Of a DNA stretch of 22,929 nt, positions 1 through 21,780 are shown piece by piece. Below the pieces are notes generated by a model. The model ran no database searches, was not told where the DNA came from, and saw only the letters and a list, made by a program, of their open reading frames with translations. How positions within the stretch are numbered: the stretch's first letter is position 1; every line of letters starts with the position of its first letter. Source of the stretch: a virus. The translations under genes were made by a program, and so were the position numbers. The stretch spans positions 1 to 22,929 of IMG/VR virus record IMGVR_UViG_3300031578_000356. One strand, 5' to 3'.

Positions 1-1
1 G

Positions 2-2110
2 CTAAAATGGTGCGAAGATAATAATGTGCCAGCATTTAGTATTGTAGATCACGGATCGGCAATATCAATGTTTGATATGACTAGGTTGGAGAGCACTAAA
101 GTTATTGGTATACCAGGTTGTGGCCTGTACTTCTCAGTAGACCATATGCTGTATCCTTTTAACGCATGGGCTGTGAGCCAAAAGGGATATTTTAACCTTA
201 TGAAACTAGCATCTCTAGGTTATGATAATCAAATAACTGAGGATGGCGTGGTTAGACCGGTACTTACTCATGATAATATCTTATCTCACAAAGAAGGTCT
301 TATATTCGGGACAGCAGACGTATATGGGGCGATCGGCATGGCAATTGCTGATGGTACAAGTGACATTGCAGAAACTAGATTTGATGAATACATCAGATTA
401 TTTGGCAATGAACTCTTGGTCGAATTCTCACCAATTTCGATTACTGAAACTTACTCTGGAAAAACTGGTTTCCAGCGAATTAAGAAAAATGAAGTGGTGG
501 CCGATGGAGATCTTAATAAGGCATATAATAAATTTTTGTTGCAAATGGTCCGTAAATATAAGTTATCGGCCATTCCAATAAGTGGTGCACATTTTATAGA
601 ATCTGAAGATAAGTTAATTCAAGATGTAGTAGCAAAAAATTCTTATGCTAGTGGTAAATATTATATCGAATCATACCATGCACGTACTGCAAAGGATATT
701 TACTGGGGATTGAAGAATCATTTAGGTGATGATCTTACAGAAGAGATGTTCAATCAGTGGATTGAGAATACCTATCCTATAGCTGAAGGTGCTAAGAATA
801 TAAAGATCGAACATAGTTTTCATATGCCAGAGATTGAAATACCTAAGCATATAAAAGTACAGACAGACGATTATGACCAACAAACTTTACTATATACTAT
901 TGAATTATGTAAGCAACATGGTCGTTGGAATGATGATCCAAAATATACAGCTAGATTAAAAAAAGAAATATCAGTTATCATGAAAAACGGTACTCTTAAT
1001 TTCTTACCATATTTTTTATTGTATGAAGATATTTGTACATATGCTAGGGCTAATGATATTCTTCAGAATATTGGTCGTGGTTCAGCTGGTGGTTGCTTAT
1101 TATCATATTACTTAAAGATCATTCATATTGATCCTATAGCAACAGATTTGCCATTTGAACGTTTTCTATCAGTAGCACGTATTAATGCTGGTTCATTTCC
1201 AGATATTGACTGTGACTTTGGCGATAGAACTCCTATTATTAAGTATTTAGAAGAGAAATATAAATTAGGATTTGCACAGATGTGCACTTTCCAAAAGATG
1301 AAAACTAAAAATGCCATTAAAGATGCAATGTGGGCATTATATGGCAAAAATCGTAAAGATCCGAATGTTGAAGCTATATGTGCTTTTATCCCTGACTCAC
1401 CTCAAGGTGTAGATGAATATGGATTTCTGTATGGATACACTAATTCTGAAGGTGAGTATACTCCAGGTGTGGTAGAAACTGTACCAGAAGTTGCTAAATT
1501 CTTTGAACAGTTTTCCCAAGTAGAAGATATGGTCAAGCGGATGATAGGTCTTGTTAGAGGATGGGGTAGACATGCATCTGCGTATGTGGTATCAACCTTA
1601 GATTTGTCTTCAACTCGCGTCCCTACTATGAAAACTTTTGATAAGCATACTAATGAGATGATTACTGTTACTCAATTTGAAGCATCTATGGTAGAGCAAT
1701 CTGGTTTAGTTAAAGCAGATATTTTAGGAGTTACAACAATTCAAGCAGTGGCAGACTGTATGAAGATGATTTTAGATCGAACGGGTGTAGATTATCTTGA
1801 AGAAGATAATTCTGGTACGTCGTTGGTATATAGATTACCAGAAGATGAGAGAGTGTATACTGACTTCTATAAAAAGAAAACGGATTCATCTTTCCAATTT
1901 AATACATCTCTTATTAAGGGTTATATCCAGCAATTCGCACCAACACAGCGAGAACACTTATCTGCTATGACCGCGCTTTGTCGACCAGGAGCGTTAGACG
2001 GTGACCTAAAATTAGATCCTGTCTGTATAATAAAGTATGACGATGGTACAGAAGAATATAGACCAGTAGGGGAATATGAACTATGGTTGGAAAAACAGCG
2101 AAACCAATAG
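2..2110 (+). CDS. dnaE: DNA polymerase III alpha subunit (DnaE-like), N-terminal fragment, 5' partial
   Basis: Replicative C-family DNA polymerase, N-terminal piece. The reading frame is open to the window edge (from base 2, reading LKWCEDNN before the GTG at 26), so the gene starts upstream. Residue numbers here count from that GTG. A PHP-type VDHGS motif lies near the start, followed by DnaE-like text such as YFNLMKLASLGY. The palm follows with GRGSAGG and FPDIDCDF (residues ~392-398), which hold two catalytic aspartates, and the third is in GLVKADILG (D565). The spacing fits E. coli DnaE (403 to 555). The finger motif SSFQF...LCRPGALDG is present. The frame then ends abruptly, about 40 residues after RPG and before the YQE motif, because an HNH gene interrupts it. 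The last two residues (NQ) appear to come from the insert. The remainder of the polymerase starts at 2643. Family assignment is firm; whether the pieces assemble into an active enzyme is inferred. Confidence 0.93.
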   Translation, partial: LKWCEDNNVPAFSIVDHGSAISMFDMTRLESTKVIGIPGCGLYFSVDHMLYPFNAWAVSQKGYFNLMKLASLGYDNQITEDGVVRPVLTHDNILSHKEGLIFGTADVYGAIGMAIADGTSDIAETRFDEYIRLFGNELLVEFSPISITETYSGKTGFQRIKKNEVVADGDLNKAYNKFLLQMVRKYKLSAIPISGAHFIESEDKLIQDVVAKNSYASGKYYIESYHARTAKDIYWGLKNHLGDDLTEEMFNQWIENTYPIAEGAKNIKIEHSFHMPEIEIPKHIKVQTDDYDQQTLLYTIELCKQHGRWNDDPKYTARLKKEISVIMKNGTLNFLPYFLLYEDICTYARANDILQNIGRGSAGGCLLSYYLKIIHIDPIATDLPFERFLSVARINAGSFPDIDCDFGDRTPIIKYLEEKYKLGFAQMCTFQKMKTKNAIKDAMWALYGKNRKDPNVEAICAFIPDSPQGVDEYGFLYGYTNSEGEYTPGVVETVPEVAKFFEQFSQVEDMVKRMIGLVRGWGRHASAYVVSTLDLSSTRVPTMKTFDKHTNEMITVTQFEASMVEQSGLVKADILGVTTIQAVADCMKMILDRTGVDYLEEDNSGTSLVYRLPEDERVYTDFYKKKTDSSFQFNTSLIKGYIQQFAPTQREHLSAMTALCRPGALDGDLKLDPVCIIKYDDGTEEYRPVGEYELWLEKQRNQ

Positions 2111-2673
2111 ATGAAGGAATATTAGTTTCGCAATATGATAGTAGTAATATCTCTATAAGAGATTTAGCTAAAAAATTTGGAATAGATATTAAGAGAGTAA
2201 GGAAGATACTTAAAGAAAGCAATAGTGAAAAATTTAATAAAAGAACTAGATCGTTTGGTAGAGTAGTGTGGAATAAAGGATTAACTAAGCATGATAATGA
2301 TAAAGTCGCTAATATAGCTAAAAAATTATCTAAACATAGAGAAACACATGGGGTAAAAGATGGCTATAGTACTGTCTACTGTGATAAGTTAAGAACAAGA
2401 CTTAAAAAACATACGCACGTGTGGTTTGAGAATACTGGATACTTACCTAATTTTAAAAATAATGAGCAAATCCATCACATAGATGGTGATAAGCATAATA
2501 ATGACTTTGATAATTTAATGCTTGTTTCTGTATCAGAACATACCCGTATACATAAGAAATATGAGGAACTAACATTTAAACTAATGCAAAAAGGTTATGT
2601 ATCTTTAAATAAACAGACTGGTGAATTGGAGACAGAATTCTTATGGCGAATGCTGAACGAGGACGCCGAATAG
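2083..2673 (+). CDS. HNH homing endonuclease interrupting dnaE
   Basis: Predicted site-specific DNA endonuclease, 196 residues. Residues ~12-46 form a helix-turn-helix (ISIRDLAKKFGIDIKRVRKIL). Residues ~59-86 resemble the NUMOD3 DNA-binding motif (VVWNKGLTKHDNDKVANIAK). The HNH core spans ~128-158, with H131/H132, D134, N140, N144, H153 and H157. The ATG lies inside the end of the upstream polymerase fragment, with AGGGGA nine bases before it. The stop lies 31 bases inside the downstream fragment, so the gene overlaps both pieces and is likely translationally coupled. Its frame differs from both. The base composition is visibly more AT-rich than the flanking polymerase. By analogy with free-standing endonucleases that split phage genes (MobE in Aeromonas phage Aeh1 nrdA), it probably cleaves the uninterrupted dnaE allele and spreads by homing. 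The target site is inferred, not shown. Confidence 0.9.
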   Translation: MVGKTAKPIDEGILVSQYDSSNISIRDLAKKFGIDIKRVRKILKESNSEKFNKRTRSFGRVVWNKGLTKHDNDKVANIAKKLSKHRETHGVKDGYSTVYCDKLRTRLKKHTHVWFENTGYLPNFKNNEQIHHIDGDKHNNDFDNLMLVSVSEHTRIHKKYEELTFKLMQKGYVSLNKQTGELETEFLWRMLNEDAE

Positions 2674-3962
2674 TTAGCGTCGAAAAATATGAAGCACTAA
2701 ATACTACCGCGGCACAATATTATATGGATGTTAGGAACAACATACAACCTCTTCGCTATTTACACCCTGATTTAGCAACATGTACTTCAAATGGTGTGTT
2801 TGTATACCAAGAAGAAGTCATGAAATTCTTAGTAGATTATGGTGGCTATTCTTTAGAGGAGTCTGATCGTATTCGTGGTGCTATCGCAAAGAAAAAGCAA
2901 GAAGTGATGATGGAAGCTTTCGATAAGATTCGGAAGAATACTACACCTAGAGGGTGGACAGTAGAACAGCAACAAGTTGTATGTGACATGGTTCAAGCAT
3001 TTGCAAGATATAGCTTTAACCGTTCTCATTCTCGTTGTTACGGAGAACTCGGTTACATCACTATGTATTTGAAGCATCACCATAAATTAGAGTGGTGGAC
3101 AGCAGTTCTTAATAATACTTCTAATGAAGATAAGTTACGTCATTATATGACTCTACTTGGAGATCTAGTTCAATCCCCCTCAATAGATAAACCAACACGC
3201 AAGTTCACTATTCGTGGAGATAAGATTGTTGCTCCTCTTTCTGTATTGAAACGTGTTGGAGGAACATCAATTGATGAGTTGGTTGAAAAAGGACCGTTTA
3301 AAGATCTTGATGATTATATTGACCGTGTTAAACATAATAAAGTGAATATTGGACATTTCTCATCTATTATAAAAGGACGAGCTGCCGATTGCTTCATGGA
3401 TCCGAATTTGCCTTATGATGAGGCACGCTTAAAACTCATGGAAGAGTATCAGGCGAAAAGAAAATGTAATTCATTTAAAGATGAAATGCTAGATGTTTCA
3501 CCTATGTCTGTTTTCTTAATGGAGAAAGATACAAATAGATGCTTTAATAAAACAATCCTCAATGATCCTGAATTAGTAAAAACCATCACCACAATTAATA
3601 CTGATTTTATAGCTACAGGTCGTAAGGGAGTACCAATGATATTTAGACGTACACCAATACTAGCTAATTTAGCAGTTGCACAAGGTTTACTAGAAAATAA
3701 ACATGATTCAACTATAGGTATGATCATGTTGTTTGAAGGTTCCACTTCACGAAGTGGTGTATCTAAAAAGAGTGGTAAACCATTTACTATGGTAAAAACT
3801 ATGCTATCTGATGGTTTTACAACTGTAGAATGCGTTATGTGGGATAGTAAAAAAGCTTTTGGTTGGCCTCACAATAGCTTAGTATTTGTTCGTGGCCAAC
3901 TTAAAGAAGGTTGGAATACACCAATTAGTATAACCATTTCTGATATTGAAAGGATTACATAA
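2643..3962 (+). CDS. dnaE: DNA polymerase III alpha subunit (DnaE-like), C-terminal fragment
   Basis: The 439-residue continuation of the interrupted polymerase. Residues ~40-80 carry the DnaE finger text YLHPDLATCTSNGVFVYQEEV and GYSLEESDRIRGAIAKKKQEVM, matching the family's YQEQVM...LRRAMGKKK region. FARYSFNRSHSRCYGELGY and TMYLKHHHKLEWW match the FNKSHSAAYA...YLKAHYP region. The C-terminal ~90 residues (SGKPFTMVKTMLSDGFTTVECVMW) look like the OB-fold nucleic-acid-binding domain. The ATG at 2643 lies within the HNH gene, with GGAG about 11 bases upstream also inside it. The first five residues (MANAE) appear to be derived from the insert. Fusing CGA at 2099-2101 directly to GGA at 2661 restores a sensible continuous polymerase (...LEKQR-GRRIVSVEKY...). 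It should therefore work as a separately translated subunit of a two-chain polymerase unless splicing occurs. Confidence 0.92.
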   Translation: MANAERGRRIVSVEKYEALNTTAAQYYMDVRNNIQPLRYLHPDLATCTSNGVFVYQEEVMKFLVDYGGYSLEESDRIRGAIAKKKQEVMMEAFDKIRKNTTPRGWTVEQQQVVCDMVQAFARYSFNRSHSRCYGELGYITMYLKHHHKLEWWTAVLNNTSNEDKLRHYMTLLGDLVQSPSIDKPTRKFTIRGDKIVAPLSVLKRVGGTSIDELVEKGPFKDLDDYIDRVKHNKVNIGHFSSIIKGRAADCFMDPNLPYDEARLKLMEEYQAKRKCNSFKDEMLDVSPMSVFLMEKDTNRCFNKTILNDPELVKTITTINTDFIATGRKGVPMIFRRTPILANLAVAQGLLENKHDSTIGMIMLFEGSTSRSGVSKKSGKPFTMVKTMLSDGFTTVECVMWDSKKAFGWPHNSLVFVRGQLKEGWNTPISITISDIERIT

Positions 3963-13600: not shown

Positions 13601-14479
13601 ATGCGTTTGTCTTGGATAATATTAGAAGGTTTAGATAAAACGGGCAAGTCAACCGTAGCTGAAATCTATAAAAATAAAGGTTTCGAAGTGGTGCACATGT
13701 CTGCACCCGATAAAAAATATACTGAAACAGGTTATGCTGGTCCTCTCTATATAGATGAAGTATTAGAAATGTATATGGAGTACGATGCGCGTGATGTTAT
13801 TTTTGATCGCTCACCGTACGGTGAGACAATCTGGCCACATGTGTATGGTCGTAAACCAATGCTAGATGATGATGATTTTGAAGTATTGCGTGAATTCGAA
13901 GATAAGAACCAAGTAAAACGCATTCTTATGATTGATCCTAATGCTAAAGCCCACTGGGAACGATGTGTAGCAAATAATGAACCCCTCAACATGCAGCAAT
14001 TTAAAGTAGCTTCAGCACTATTTAATAAAATGGCTCATAAATACAATTTCTTACCTCAGCAATTGGGAGATTATGATGGACAAGCAATTGCTACGAGGCA
14101 AGATCTTAATAAGACTCAAGAAGAGAAACATGACAACGTGGGAGAAAATAAACCTCTCGGGTCAGATGTTACTACTGTTAGTGGTAACGATACCAGACAA
14201 GATAAGACGTCGCTTCAAAAAAACAGTGGTAAAAGCAAAGAACAAGAAAAGCTTGAACAGGCCAATGCCATCAACAGCGTATTATCAAAACGAATCATTC
14301 GACAGAAGGGAATGATTTTTGATAAACTAGAATCAGATATAAAGCAATTTTTACAGCAACAGCTTAGTGTGATATTGGGAAATAACCTAGAATCTAAGTT
14401 GTTATCTGAAACAGAGGTACAAATACTTAAACTATATTGTCAACGAATTCTAGAAAAACAAAAAGAAGTAAGAGGATAA
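13601..14479 (+). CDS. dTMP-kinase-like P-loop protein with helical C-terminal extension
   Basis: 292 residues. The first ~150 form a nucleoside-monophosphate-kinase-like domain. Its P-loop is EGLDKTGKS (residues 9-17) as in thymidylate kinases, and the DRX motif is VIFDRSPYGE (~64-73). A polar linker follows (~155-205, Asn/Lys/Thr-rich), then a predicted helical region (~205-292, e.g. LESDIKQFLQQQLSVIL, CQRILEKQKE). Normal dTMP kinases are ~205-220 residues without this tail. It is encoded between portal and capsid genes, so a structural or assembly-linked role is possible. Start: AGGAGG (13594-13599) is only one base from the ATG at 13601, but seven from an in-frame TTG at 13607, which may be the real start (giving MSWIILEG). 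The substrate is not established; another Tmk lies at 21115. Confidence 0.8.
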   Translation: MRLSWIILEGLDKTGKSTVAEIYKNKGFEVVHMSAPDKKYTETGYAGPLYIDEVLEMYMEYDARDVIFDRSPYGETIWPHVYGRKPMLDDDDFEVLREFEDKNQVKRILMIDPNAKAHWERCVANNEPLNMQQFKVASALFNKMAHKYNFLPQQLGDYDGQAIATRQDLNKTQEEKHDNVGENKPLGSDVTTVSGNDTRQDKTSLQKNSGKSKEQEKLEQANAINSVLSKRIIRQKGMIFDKLESDIKQFLQQQLSVILGNNLESKLLSETEVQILKLYCQRILEKQKEVRG

Positions 14480-17154: not shown

Positions 17155-17195
17155 TAGTAGACGCATTGTTAACAACAACCCCTGAAAGGTTTAAC

Positions 17196-18017
17196 ATGAA
17201 CGAAGAAATGATAAAAAGTCTTGTAGATCTTATCGATGACTCAATGTCTGAGATTGAAGAATTGCGCAAGTCTGGTCGTTTCTCTGCGTCTGAAGTAAGT
17301 CTTGGTGATTCTGCATCTGGTATCGAAAGTCGTGATAAGAACGGCTCAATCGGTAAAAAAGAAGATGCTGAAAAAGCTGAAGACGAAGACGAAGACGAAG
17401 ACGAAGACGAAAAAGACGAAGATAAAAAAGATAAAAAAGACGACGATAAAAAAGACATGGACAAAGCTGATGGAACTAACAGCGAGTCTGATCCTAATGC
17501 CGGTAAACATCAAGCTGCTAAGGCAGACGATGAGATGGATAAGGGCGAAATGATGTCTGGGGATTCTAATAAAGGATCATCTACTGGCGGTAGCGCTGGT
17601 AATAATCGTCAAGCCGATCCAAACGGTGGCAAACACCAACCAGCTTACAAATCAGTTTCAGATGATGCAGAATTCAAAGAGGCTCTTAAAAAGTCTACTG
17701 AAGAAACCTCTGCTCTTATGAAAACTTATATTGATGAAAAAGTTGGTAGTCTAGAAGCAAAATTAACTTCTATTGCCGACTTAGTGAAAGAAATAGCGAA
17801 TACACCAGTTCCTTCTAAAGGAAGTTCTTATAAGAATGTAACCCCTCTTACAAAGTCTCAGCCTGAAACTGAAACTTTGAGCAAAGCGGAAGTTGCAGAT
17901 AAGTTATTCGAGTTGAAGAAATCTGGTGGAAAAGTAGATTCAATGGACATTGCTAGCGTAGAACTCGGATCTCCCGGTGAACTATCTAGAATCGTTAATA
18001 AGTACAACATTAAATAA
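17196..18017 (+). CDS. Acidic scaffold-like protein
   Basis: 273 residues from ATG 17196 (GAAAGG eight bases upstream); a TTG at 17166 in the same frame is unlikely. The N-terminus is a helix (EEMIKSLVDLIDDSMSEIEELRK). Residues ~54-92 are a Glu/Asp/Lys tract encoded by hexanucleotide repeats. A motif DPN(A/G)GKHQ(A/P)A occurs twice, at 99-108 and 141-150. A coiled-coil-like helix follows (~155-205, EALKKSTEETSALMKTYIDEK), and the C-terminus (~235-273, AEVADKLFELKKSGGK) is compact and helical. Position immediately upstream of the major capsid protein, the disordered acidic centre and the helical C-terminus fit a head scaffold that is removed by the protease. Sequence homology to a named scaffold family was not established. 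Confidence 0.75.
   Translation: MNEEMIKSLVDLIDDSMSEIEELRKSGRFSASEVSLGDSASGIESRDKNGSIGKKEDAEKAEDEDEDEDEDEKDEDKKDKKDDDKKDMDKADGTNSESDPNAGKHQAAKADDEMDKGEMMSGDSNKGSSTGGSAGNNRQADPNGGKHQPAYKSVSDDAEFKEALKKSTEETSALMKTYIDEKVGSLEAKLTSIADLVKEIANTPVPSKGSSYKNVTPLTKSQPETETLSKAEVADKLFELKKSGGKVDSMDIASVELGSPGELSRIVNKYNIK
17379..17408 (+). repeat. Hexanucleotide tandem repeat (GAAGAC)5
   Basis: Five consecutive GAAGAC units encode Glu-Asp pairs in the scaffold-like protein, followed by degenerate GAAAAAGAC and GATAAAAAA units. Unit changes alter length but not frame. Confidence 0.85.
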
Positions 18018-19508: not shown

Positions 19509-19535
19509 AGGGCGACTTTGGTCGCCCTTTTTATT
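19509..19535 (+). terminator. Strong intrinsic terminator after the capsid gene
   Basis: AGGGCGAC (19509-19516) pairs with GTCGCCCT (19521-19528) around a TTTG loop and is followed by TTTTATTT. It closes the head operon 23 bases after the capsid stop. Confidence 0.95.
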
Positions 19536-19560
19536 TCTGCTAAATTAATTTTGCAATATG

Positions 19561-19567
19561 GTATAAT
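19561..19567 (+). promoter_or_regulatory. Putative extended -10 promoter (TGGTATAAT) before HNH-kinase gene
   Basis: TGGTATAAT is an extended -10 element placed 26 bases after the terminator tract and 20 bases before the ATG at 19587. It is embedded in a short inverted repeat TATGG...CCATA. It gives the endonuclease its own transcription start. Confidence 0.5.
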
Positions 19568-19586
19568 TTCCATACGGGGAGATTAT

Positions 19587-20852
19587 ATGAGAAAAAAGAA
19601 AATAAATGCAGAAAGTGCAAAATTAATTTGCCAATTTTATAAAAACGGATCATCTATAAACTACATAGTTAATAATACCGGTATTACTCGTAGAATAGTA
19701 GAGCGTTCGCTAATTGAGAATGGTTTAAAGTTAAAAACCAAGTCTGAGAAAATTACAGATAGATTCCCTATCCTAAAAAACCGCGATGCACTAGTTGATC
19801 TTTACTATAATAAGGCTATGAGTCTAGATGAGATAGCCTTTGAGATAGGCACCAATTCCCAAGTTGTTAAAACGGCCTTTACCCGATTGAGTATAGAAAG
19901 ACTCCCACAGAACATAAAGCGAATTACAAAAAATACTCCTGATAAGCTACGTGATATGGAATATTTACAGCATGAATATATAAACAACAAACGTTCAGTA
20001 AGTAATATCGCAAAGCAATTCGGGGTTAGTGATACTACAGTTAGAACAATGCTTAAGTATTATGGTATATCTAGACGATCACATATCGAGCAGATGCAAC
20101 TAACTCTCCTTTCTCCTGAAGAAAAGTTAAATGCAAAAATAGCCAGAAGATTGAGATCGCGATTGAGTAACGCTGTCACAAATGGCCAGAAAGCAGGTTC
20201 TGCTGTGAGAGATTTAGGCTCTTCAATAGAAGAATTGAAAAAGTACTTGGAGTCTAAATTTACCTTAGGTATGTCTTGGGACAATTATGGATACTGCGGT
20301 TGGCACATAGACCATATCAAACCATTAGATTCATTTGACCTAAGCAACTCTGAGGAGTTTAAGAAGGCATGTCACTATAGCAATTTACAACCTTTATGGG
20401 CAAATGATAATTTTATTAAATCTAATAAAGCCCCTTCATCTAGTAAGATTAAACTCTATATTGTGTGTGGGCCTTGTGGCTCAGGTAAGTCCTGGGTGTG
20501 TAATCAAATTTCCGATAATTTAAAATACATAAGTTATGATTCTGTTCCCAAAGAAGAGCATTATTATGAATTTGTAGAGGCAGCTAAAGCTGGTATGGAT
20601 ATTATCTATGATCCGCTTCGCAAGCCAACTACCATCATGAATAGGTATAAAGATGAATTCGATATTAAGCTATGTGTGATAGACGAAGACTTGAATACAA
20701 TAGTTTCACGTATAAAGAATAGGAATGGTAAACCCAATATACAAAATATAAAAAAGGCTCTTAATAAGGTACCTCGTTGGAAAAAACATGCCTCTTTCAC
20801 AGGCACCTCTTCAGAAGTATTGAAATACCTTAAAACTAAACTCAATATATAG
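19587..20852 (+). CDS. HNH endonuclease fused to a P-loop kinase-like domain
   Basis: 421 residues from ATG 19587, chosen because GGGGAG lies just upstream and the -10 element excludes the in-frame upstream start at 19518. Three helix-turn-helix units are visible: ~8-47 (INYIVNNTGITRRIVERSL), ~68-105 (MSLDEIAFEIGTNSQVVKTAF) and ~125-165 (SVSNIAKQFGVSDTTVRTML). An HNH nuclease follows with WHIDHIKPLDSF (H240, D242, H243) and NLQPLWANDNFIKSNK (N266). The C-terminal ~130 residues form a P-loop domain: GPCGSGKS (295-302), YDSV, IIYDPLRKPT and a basic lid-like VSRIKNRNGK. It resembles small nucleotide or polynucleotide kinases and zeta-toxin-like folds. Free-standing homing endonucleases seldom carry such a domain. 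Nuclease identity is firm; the substrate of the kinase-like domain is unknown. Confidence 0.88.
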   Translation: MRKKKINAESAKLICQFYKNGSSINYIVNNTGITRRIVERSLIENGLKLKTKSEKITDRFPILKNRDALVDLYYNKAMSLDEIAFEIGTNSQVVKTAFTRLSIERLPQNIKRITKNTPDKLRDMEYLQHEYINNKRSVSNIAKQFGVSDTTVRTMLKYYGISRRSHIEQMQLTLLSPEEKLNAKIARRLRSRLSNAVTNGQKAGSAVRDLGSSIEELKKYLESKFTLGMSWDNYGYCGWHIDHIKPLDSFDLSNSEEFKKACHYSNLQPLWANDNFIKSNKAPSSSKIKLYIVCGPCGSGKSWVCNQISDNLKYISYDSVPKEEHYYEFVEAAKAGMDIIYDPLRKPTTIMNRYKDEFDIKLCVIDEDLNTIVSRIKNRNGKPNIQNIKKALNKVPRWKKHASFTGTSSEVLKYLKTKLNI

Positions 20853-21114: not shown

Positions 21115-21780
21115 GTGACAAATTCTATTTTTCCAGCTAAGTATTTAGTATTTGAGGGATGTGAGGGTGTAGGTAAAACAACTCAAACTAAAAAATTAGC
21201 AGAATATTTACGTAAAAAGGGTTATAGTGTACTTGAAACGAAAGAACCAGGTACACCGTTGTCCCCATTAACTATGCAACTACGTGGCATCATGCTTGAT
21301 GCCCAATATGAAAATGAAATGACTTCTACCGCACGTGAGTTAATTAGTCAAGCCATTCGCTCAATTCATCTAGAGCAAATAATCAAACCTGCATTAAATA
21401 AATATGATTTTATAATTCAAGATCGTGGAATCTTATCAGGTCTTGCATATGGTGATGCATGTGGAAATAGCATTGAATGGCTTCAAGATCTAGCCGAATG
21501 TGTATCAGAACCAATCACCCTAGATCCTTATTCTCTATATGATGCAGTAATTTATCTTTCTGGAGATGTTTCTAATGGTTTAACTAAAGCTAAAAATGCT
21601 AAACAAGAATTTGAAACTGGGGATGCAATAGAAGCAAAAGGAAGCGACTTTATGCACACTGTCTCCTTACAAATGGTAAAGTATGCTAGCTGGTTTAATA
21701 CTAAAACTATTAACGTCGATGGTAGAAATATTGACGAAGTATTTGATGAAATAATACAAATACTCGAATTGGAGCAATAA
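21115..21780 (+). CDS. tmk: Thymidylate kinase
   Basis: 221-residue dTMP kinase converting dTMP to dTDP for phage DNA synthesis, of usual family length. The P-loop FEGCEGVGKTTQ (residues 13-24) matches the FEGxDGxGKTTQ signature. ETKEPGTPLS corresponds to the TREPGGT motif, with Lys in place of Arg. IIQDRGILSGLAYG (~99-112) is the DRx motif. The late region GDAIEAKGSDFMHTVSLQMVKYASWF matches the xRIE...F...V...Y...A segment, though the lid SNGLTKAKNAK has Lys instead of the usual Arg residues. The start is GTG at 21115 with AAAGGGGG upstream, one base after the small protein's stop. The stop overlaps the next ATG by one base. It is distinct from the kinase-like protein at 13601. Confidence 0.92.
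   Translation: MTNSIFPAKYLVFEGCEGVGKTTQTKKLAEYLRKKGYSVLETKEPGTPLSPLTMQLRGIMLDAQYENEMTSTARELISQAIRSIHLEQIIKPALNKYDFIIQDRGILSGLAYGDACGNSIEWLQDLAECVSEPITLDPYSLYDAVIYLSGDVSNGLTKAKNAKQEFETGDAIEAKGSDFMHTVSLQMVKYASWFNTKTINVDGRNIDEVFDEIIQILELEQ

What the first reader, a model, noticed from the sequence alone, without database searches (positions are those of the whole stretch)
2083..2673. Replicative DNA polymerase split into two genes by an HNH homing endonuclease
The sequence shows one DnaE-type polymerase divided between the RPGALD and YQE finger motifs, with the two pieces and the HNH gene in three different frames. Joining CGA at 2099-2101 to GGA at 2661 restores a continuous polymerase, giving an insert of 559 bases. 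The HNH gene overlaps both pieces, and its coding sequence supplies the ribosome site and start codon of the downstream piece. Known precedents are Aeh1 nrdA split by MobE and split gene 43 in T4-like phages; a C-family replicative polymerase cut in its fingers would be a notable further case. Both halves are otherwise intact, so a functional two-chain polymerase is the likely outcome.
Basis: partly seen in the sequence, partly recalled or inferred. Interest (0 to 1): 0.75.

Follow-up and report, generated by a model that had tools for sequence, protein, structure and literature searches.

The report
Phage polymerase split by self-clasping endonuclease
A mobile DNA-cutting gene has inserted into the gene for a phage's main DNA-copying enzyme and cut it into two proteins, and the inserted DNA appears to supply both cut ends with matching tags that snap together; the same arrangement recurs in eight phage lineages, which suggests a third way, besides introns and inteins, for such genes to live inside essential genes.

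Summary
The three overlapping ORFs in three frames are real. A near-identical contig (L002, 99.99%) has the same layout and the true 925-aa upstream half. The junction was misplaced. Against about 58 uninterrupted relatives, the insert is about 700 bases (2000-2699), not 559, between RPGALD and TTAAQYY in the fingers. Besides the HNH gene it adds a ~36-aa C-terminal tail to the upstream half and a ~19-aa N-terminal tail to the downstream half.

Seven other phage lineages carry the same layout at the same site. The tails are conserved as protein (codon-position identity 54/68/39%; dN/dS about 0.1) and match no Pfam, PHROG or PDB entry. No intron or intein was found. The split state is scattered over the polymerase tree (at least 7 changes), and HNH and polymerase relationships disagree, as expected of homing.

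AlphaFold2, given both tails in one artificial chain, folds them as beta-beta-alpha plus beta (pLDDT 82-86), while the junk linker stays below 50.

Best explanation: a homing HNH element that brings a split protein clasp, giving a working two-chain Pol III alpha without splicing. The nearest precedent is Aeh1 NrdA/MobE. Clasping and polymerase activity are untested.

The parts
1..2110 (+). Upstream polymerase half (Pol III alpha: PHP, palm with PDIDCD at about 1199-1216 and third Asp codon at 1718-1720, first half of fingers); truncated by the window start, full gene 925 aa in L002
   Evidence: catalytic motif read from the sequence and invariant at the aspartates in alignment A8
1832..2005 (+). 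First half of the Pfam finger domain (PF17657, profile 24-82)
2000..2699 (+). Whole insert relative to uninterrupted relatives (~700 bases, boundaries good to a few codons)
2000..2107 (+). C-terminal tail of the upstream half (GDLKLDPVCIIKYDDGTEEYRPVGEYELWLEKQRNQ), conserved in 8 lineages; predicted beta-beta-alpha
2068..2073 (+). AGGGGA ribosome-site-like sequence for the HNH gene, 9 nt before ATG 2083
   Evidence: GAGGA-like sequence at the same place in L031 and L015
2083..2673 (+). HNH endonuclease gene (196 aa): HTH-like residues ~15-50 (weak matches), HNH_3 residues 108-155
2404..2547 (+). HNH_3 catalytic domain, motif HHIDGDK.NN...NL.L...EH..IHK intact
2628..2631 (+). GGAG ribosome-site-like sequence for the downstream half, inside the HNH gene
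   Evidence: L130 has ttggagactggg and L015/L031/L122 have agaggtg at about the same place
2643..2699 (+). N-terminal tail of the downstream half (MANAERGRRIVSVEKYEAL), predicted to supply a further beta strand
2643..3962 (+). Downstream polymerase half (rest of fingers, HhH, weak OB-fold match; 439 aa, ATG start)
2697..2939 (+). Second half of the Pfam finger domain (PF17657, profile 79-161)

Best explanation
This is a mobile HNH homing element inserted in the fingers of a phage Pol III alpha gene. It splits the gene into two translated halves with no splicing. The insert carries an in-frame C-terminal tag for the upstream half, then the HNH gene in a second frame, then a ribosome site, start codon and N-terminal tag for the downstream half. 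The two tags fold together into a small beta-beta-alpha plus beta domain that clasps the halves, so the finger domain re-forms and the essential polymerase works as two chains. Because the insertion is nearly harmless, the HNH gene can home between phages at this conserved site. Shown here: the layout, its recurrence, protein-level conservation of the tails, and scattered spread. Inferred: clasping, polymerase activity and HNH cleavage.
For: Eight lineages (window, L015, L031, L122, L130, L166, L168, L200) share the site, the frames, the overlaps and the start position. C-tail over 5 lineages: codon-position identity 54/68/39%, frame +0 scores well above every other frame, 0 of 2000 column permutations as high. 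L168 vs L200 C-tail dN 0.14, dS 1.40, close to the polymerase body at 0.088 and 1.25. The N-tail is most conserved in the P2 frame although it overlaps the HNH gene. The split state needs 7 changes forced by well-supported branches, and the window's nearest kin L003/L004 are uninterrupted. L031-L166: HNH 64%, C-tail 61%, polymerase 47%; L031-L130: HNH 35%, polymerase 77%. AF2 of an artificial chain holding both tails: strands VCIIKY and EEYRP, a helix, and strand IVSVEKY, pLDDT 82-86, linker below 50. Upstream half alone: the unpaired half-finger is below 50 but the tail hairpin-helix is about 80. No second Pol III alpha and no PolA or PolB in the 108-kb and 81-kb relative contigs. No Rfam match.
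Against: No expression, activity or binding data. The chain is artificial (one +1 step, and stop codons read as residues, to make a linker), its alignment holds no tail relatives, and no contact map was returned. The window's C-tail is less like the others than they are to each other. The relative contigs are not shown to be complete, so a second polymerase is not excluded. Other pairings, such as each tail packing on its own chain, are not excluded.
Confidence: 0.8

Rival explanations
1. A two-chain polymerase held together only by the ordinary fold of the fingers. The tails are passive leftovers of the insertion, or serve only to carry ribosome sites and overlaps.
For: Parts of the tails overlap the HNH gene and its ribosome site, so some residues (EE, W) are partly fixed by DNA needs.
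Against: The VEYEDG hairpin lies upstream of any overlap and is conserved in its own frame, with dN/dS about 0.1. AF2 gives the tails order.
Confidence: 0.12
2. A self-splicing intron or other RNA splicing joins the halves.
For: HNH genes often sit in phage group I introns (PMC2988022, PMC3984707).
Against: No group I or II match at gathering level in the window or in four split relatives, nor at E 10 around the site. Only ~110 bases of the insert lie outside the HNH gene. The start of the downstream half and a ribosome-like site before it are conserved, and the tails are conserved as protein.
Confidence: 0.03
3. A split intein joins the chains by trans-splicing, as in the fractured genes of marine phages.
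For: The layout (tag, endonuclease, tag) is similar, and DNA polymerases are common intein hosts (general knowledge).
Against: The tails total only ~55 aa; no intein model in Pfam or NCBIfam; the tail ends have no constant Cys/Ser/Thr or terminal Asn.
Confidence: 0.03
4. The polymerase is dead or dispensable and the split gene is decaying.
For: A gene interrupted by a selfish element can be a pseudogene.
Against: Both halves are open, catalytic residues are kept, body dN/dS is about 0.07 between two split relatives, and no other replicative polymerase was found.
Confidence: 0.02

Closest known systems
Aeromonas phage Aeh1 nrdA-a / mobE / nrdA-b (Crona et al. 2011, Nucleic Acids Res 39:1381; cited in PMC3267527; also PMC2988022)
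   Same: An HNH gene splits an essential gene and two chains make the active enzyme. [quoted passage not shown] that these are tails needed for activity is my recollection, the paper is not held.
   Different: Different host gene and a different HNH protein. The Aeh1 tail sequences, read from the record, look unrelated by eye. Here the arrangement recurs in 8 lineages with conserved tails.
Split gene 43 of Aeromonas phage 25 and 44RR (PMC2988022)
   Same: A replicative polymerase encoded as two chains that co-purify and are active, with an endonuclease gene at the site in phage 25.
   Different: B-type polymerase, with a seg-like gene or an untranslated spacer; the review passage mentions no conserved tails.
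Fractured genes with split inteins (Dassa et al. 2009, not held; cited in PMC10448857)
   Same: Gene halves with tags flanking a homing endonuclease gene (from memory and title).
   Different: There the halves are ligated by a split intein; here no intein is found.
mobA insertion in the T4 topoisomerase large-subunit gene (PMC2988022)
   Same: A mobile endonuclease gene splits a large-subunit gene into separate coding regions whose products assemble.
   Different: Different gene; no conserved tail pair mentioned in that passage.

Membership tests
C-family DNA polymerase III alpha | Palm and fingers domains of the family | tested here: met
   Pfam, PHROGs and NCBIfam matches spread over two ORFs; fold match of the modelled finger region to Pol III alpha structures
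C-family DNA polymerase III alpha | Catalytic aspartates kept | tested here: met
   D393, D395, D397 region and D565 invariant or kept in alignment A8
HNH homing endonuclease | HNH catalytic motif | tested here: met
   HNH_3 1.2e-11, above cut-off; motif invariant in relatives
HNH homing endonuclease | Scattered presence at one site, discordant with the host gene tree | tested here: met
   7 forced changes; HNH and polymerase identities disagree
HNH homing endonuclease | Cuts the uninterrupted allele | not testable with these tools
   needs a cleavage assay
Group I or II intron | Intron RNA core | tested here: not met
   no Rfam match
Split intein | Intein motifs and conserved splice-junction residues | tested here: not met
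   no intein model matched; ends not constant
Endonuclease-split gene with assembly tails (Aeh1 NrdA type) | Gene split by a free-standing endonuclease gene without splicing, with extra tails on both halves | tested here: met
Endonuclease-split gene with assembly tails (Aeh1 NrdA type) | Tails needed for assembly and activity | not testable with these tools
   only conservation and AF2 support
Endonuclease-split gene with assembly tails (Aeh1 NrdA type) | Common descent with the Aeh1 tails or MobE | tested here: inconclusive
   Aeh1 sequences compared by eye only, no likeness seen

The most novel reading that the evidence does not exclude
The HNH gene and the split beta-beta-alpha-beta clasp form one mobile cassette. 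The clasp is cargo that evolved to make insertion into an essential gene harmless, a third strategy beside introns and inteins, and it has homed repeatedly among distant phage Pol III alpha genes.
Probability: 0.55. Interest if true: 0.82.

Novelty: new variant of a known kind. Interest (0 to 1): 0.7.

Why it matters
As far as I know, one experimental case (Aeh1 NrdA) suggested that mobile endonucleases can bring tails that reassemble the protein they break. Here is an independent case in a different essential enzyme, seen in eight lineages, with tails conserved as protein and many natural uninterrupted controls. That makes it testable whether this is a general strategy. It would also show a replicative C-family polymerase working with its fingers cut, and it may offer a small natural two-part protein clasp.

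Tried and rejected
Junction at 2101/2661: rejected by alignment to uninterrupted relatives. Intron: Rfam at two thresholds, none. Intein: none. Known domain in the joined tails: nothing significant in Pfam, PHROGs or PDB sequences; a Foldseek hit of the model to an atypical split intein (E 8.4) is chance level. Aeh1 tails: no likeness by eye. Alignments meant to add split-lineage tails to the artificial chain were misaligned by MAFFT (A6, A7) and not used; that model rests on uninterrupted rows only. Other sites for this HNH subfamily: every hit covering most of the protein at 35% or more lies at this polymerase site; more distant hits were not followed, so wider spread is open. Two named phages with remote polymerase hits (KKP_3916, vB_BpsS-140) were opened and not pursued. 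Searches of the held library found no report of a Pol III alpha split this way, but most subscription papers, and the Crona and Dassa papers, are not held.

Full report
What is there. The window opens inside a polymerase gene. Its ORF runs to 2110, an HNH ORF runs 2083-2673, and a second polymerase ORF runs 2643-3962, each in its own frame. The upstream half has PHP, the Pol III alpha catalytic domain and the first part of the fingers. The downstream half has the rest of the fingers, an HhH region and a weak OB-fold match. Contig L002 matches 8,264 window bases at 99.988%, has the same layout, and shows the full 925-aa upstream gene, which begins with a DnaQ-like exonuclease-type region (judged by eye).

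Where the insert begins and ends. Thirty relatives of the downstream half were found first, then many more. In the uninterrupted ones RPGALD is followed by a short variable loop and then by xxAAQYYMDV. The window has 36 extra residues on the upstream half after RPGALD and 19 on the downstream half before NTTAAQYY. So the insert is about 2000-2699, not 2102-2660. NCBIfam model PRK05673 agrees: the upstream half matches to profile position 643 and the downstream half from 644, and the tails match nothing.

Recurrence. Seven more lineages carry the same arrangement at the same site: L015 (and L025), L031, L122 (L123, L124), L130, L166, L168, L200. Each has the upstream tail, an HNH gene starting inside it, and a downstream half that starts (ATG or TTG) inside the HNH gene. 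L200 lies in a contig binned with a Flavobacteriaceae genome. Every HNH hit covering most of the protein at 35% or more is at this site.

The tails are selected as protein. The C-tails align without gaps over 31 residues in all eight. In the part before any overlap, over five lineages, identity by codon position is 54, 68 and 39%, and none of 2000 column permutations reaches the observed protein score. Between L168 and L200 the C-tail has dN 0.14 and dS 1.40; the polymerase body has 0.088 and 1.25 (few sites, and dS is near saturation). The columns of the VEYEDG stretch, EY and W are nearly constant; EE and W partly reflect the ribosome site and ATGG of the HNH gene. The N-tail is best conserved in the polymerase frame, with the overlapping HNH frame second.

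Mobility. On a 66-row polymerase tree the split state needs 7 changes, all forced by well-supported branches (quick method, some long branches). The window's nearest kin L003 and L004 are uninterrupted. HNH and polymerase relations disagree: L031 and L166 share 64% of the HNH but 47% of the polymerase, while L031 and L130 share 35% and 77%. Repeated gain by homing fits this best; one gain with many losses does not explain the discordance. Across pairs the C-tail correlates more with the HNH (0.63) than with the polymerase (0.43), which hints that tail and HNH travel together, though eight lineages are few and pairs are not independent.

Structure. AlphaFold2 on the upstream half alone leaves its unpaired half-finger below pLDDT 50 but folds the tail as hairpin plus helix at about 80. 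To put both tails in one chain, window 1703-3181 was read with one +1 step and stop codons as Ser or Gly, giving a meaningless ~180-residue linker. This is a computing device, not a product. In that model the linker is below 50, but the tails reach 82-86: strands VCIIKY and EEYRP, a helix, then strand IVSVEKY from the downstream tail, plus two short strands (DLKL, LNTT) where the tails leave the fingers. The finger region matches solved Pol III alpha structures. No contact map was available, so which strands pair is inferred.

Mechanism. Most likely the element homes into the conserved RPGALD-coding DNA, and its tags clasp the two chains so that the fingers re-form. Introns and inteins were tested and not supported. 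The larger contigs of two split relatives hold one Pol III alpha and no PolA or PolB. That makes a dispensable polymerase unlikely but does not exclude it, since completeness is unknown.

Relation to known cases. It works like Aeh1 NrdA, split by MobE (PMC2988022; title of Crona et al. in PMC3267527), and like split gene 43. It is not shown to be related to either by sequence. What is new, as far as I could check, is the host enzyme, the recurrence, and the evidence that the tails are conserved and probably form one split mini-domain. I rate it a new variant of a known kind.

Noticed in passing
window 19518-20852: 444-aa ORF just after the major head gene, with HTH-type repeats, an HNH-like region and a P-loop kinase-like C-terminus: an unusual endonuclease-kinase fusion.
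   Followed up: no
L002 968-1624; L015 146-781: GIY-YIG-like endonuclease ORFs (by eye) close upstream of the polymerase gene, so several kinds of mobile endonuclease cluster here.
   Followed up: no
L130 4174-4914: HNH protein with an extra N-terminal HTH-like repeat compared with the other lineages.
   Followed up: no
L031 and L130: Closely related polymerases (77%) and similar C-tails (72% of nucleotides) but very different HNH (35%), as if the endonuclease was exchanged between kept tails.
   Followed up: partly
window 13601-14479 and 21115-21780: Two nucleotide-kinase-like ORFs (by eye), one next to the portal gene and one at the right end.
   Followed up: no
window 17166-18017: ORF before the major head gene with a long acidic DEDEDE/KDKKDD low-complexity stretch.
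   Followed up: no
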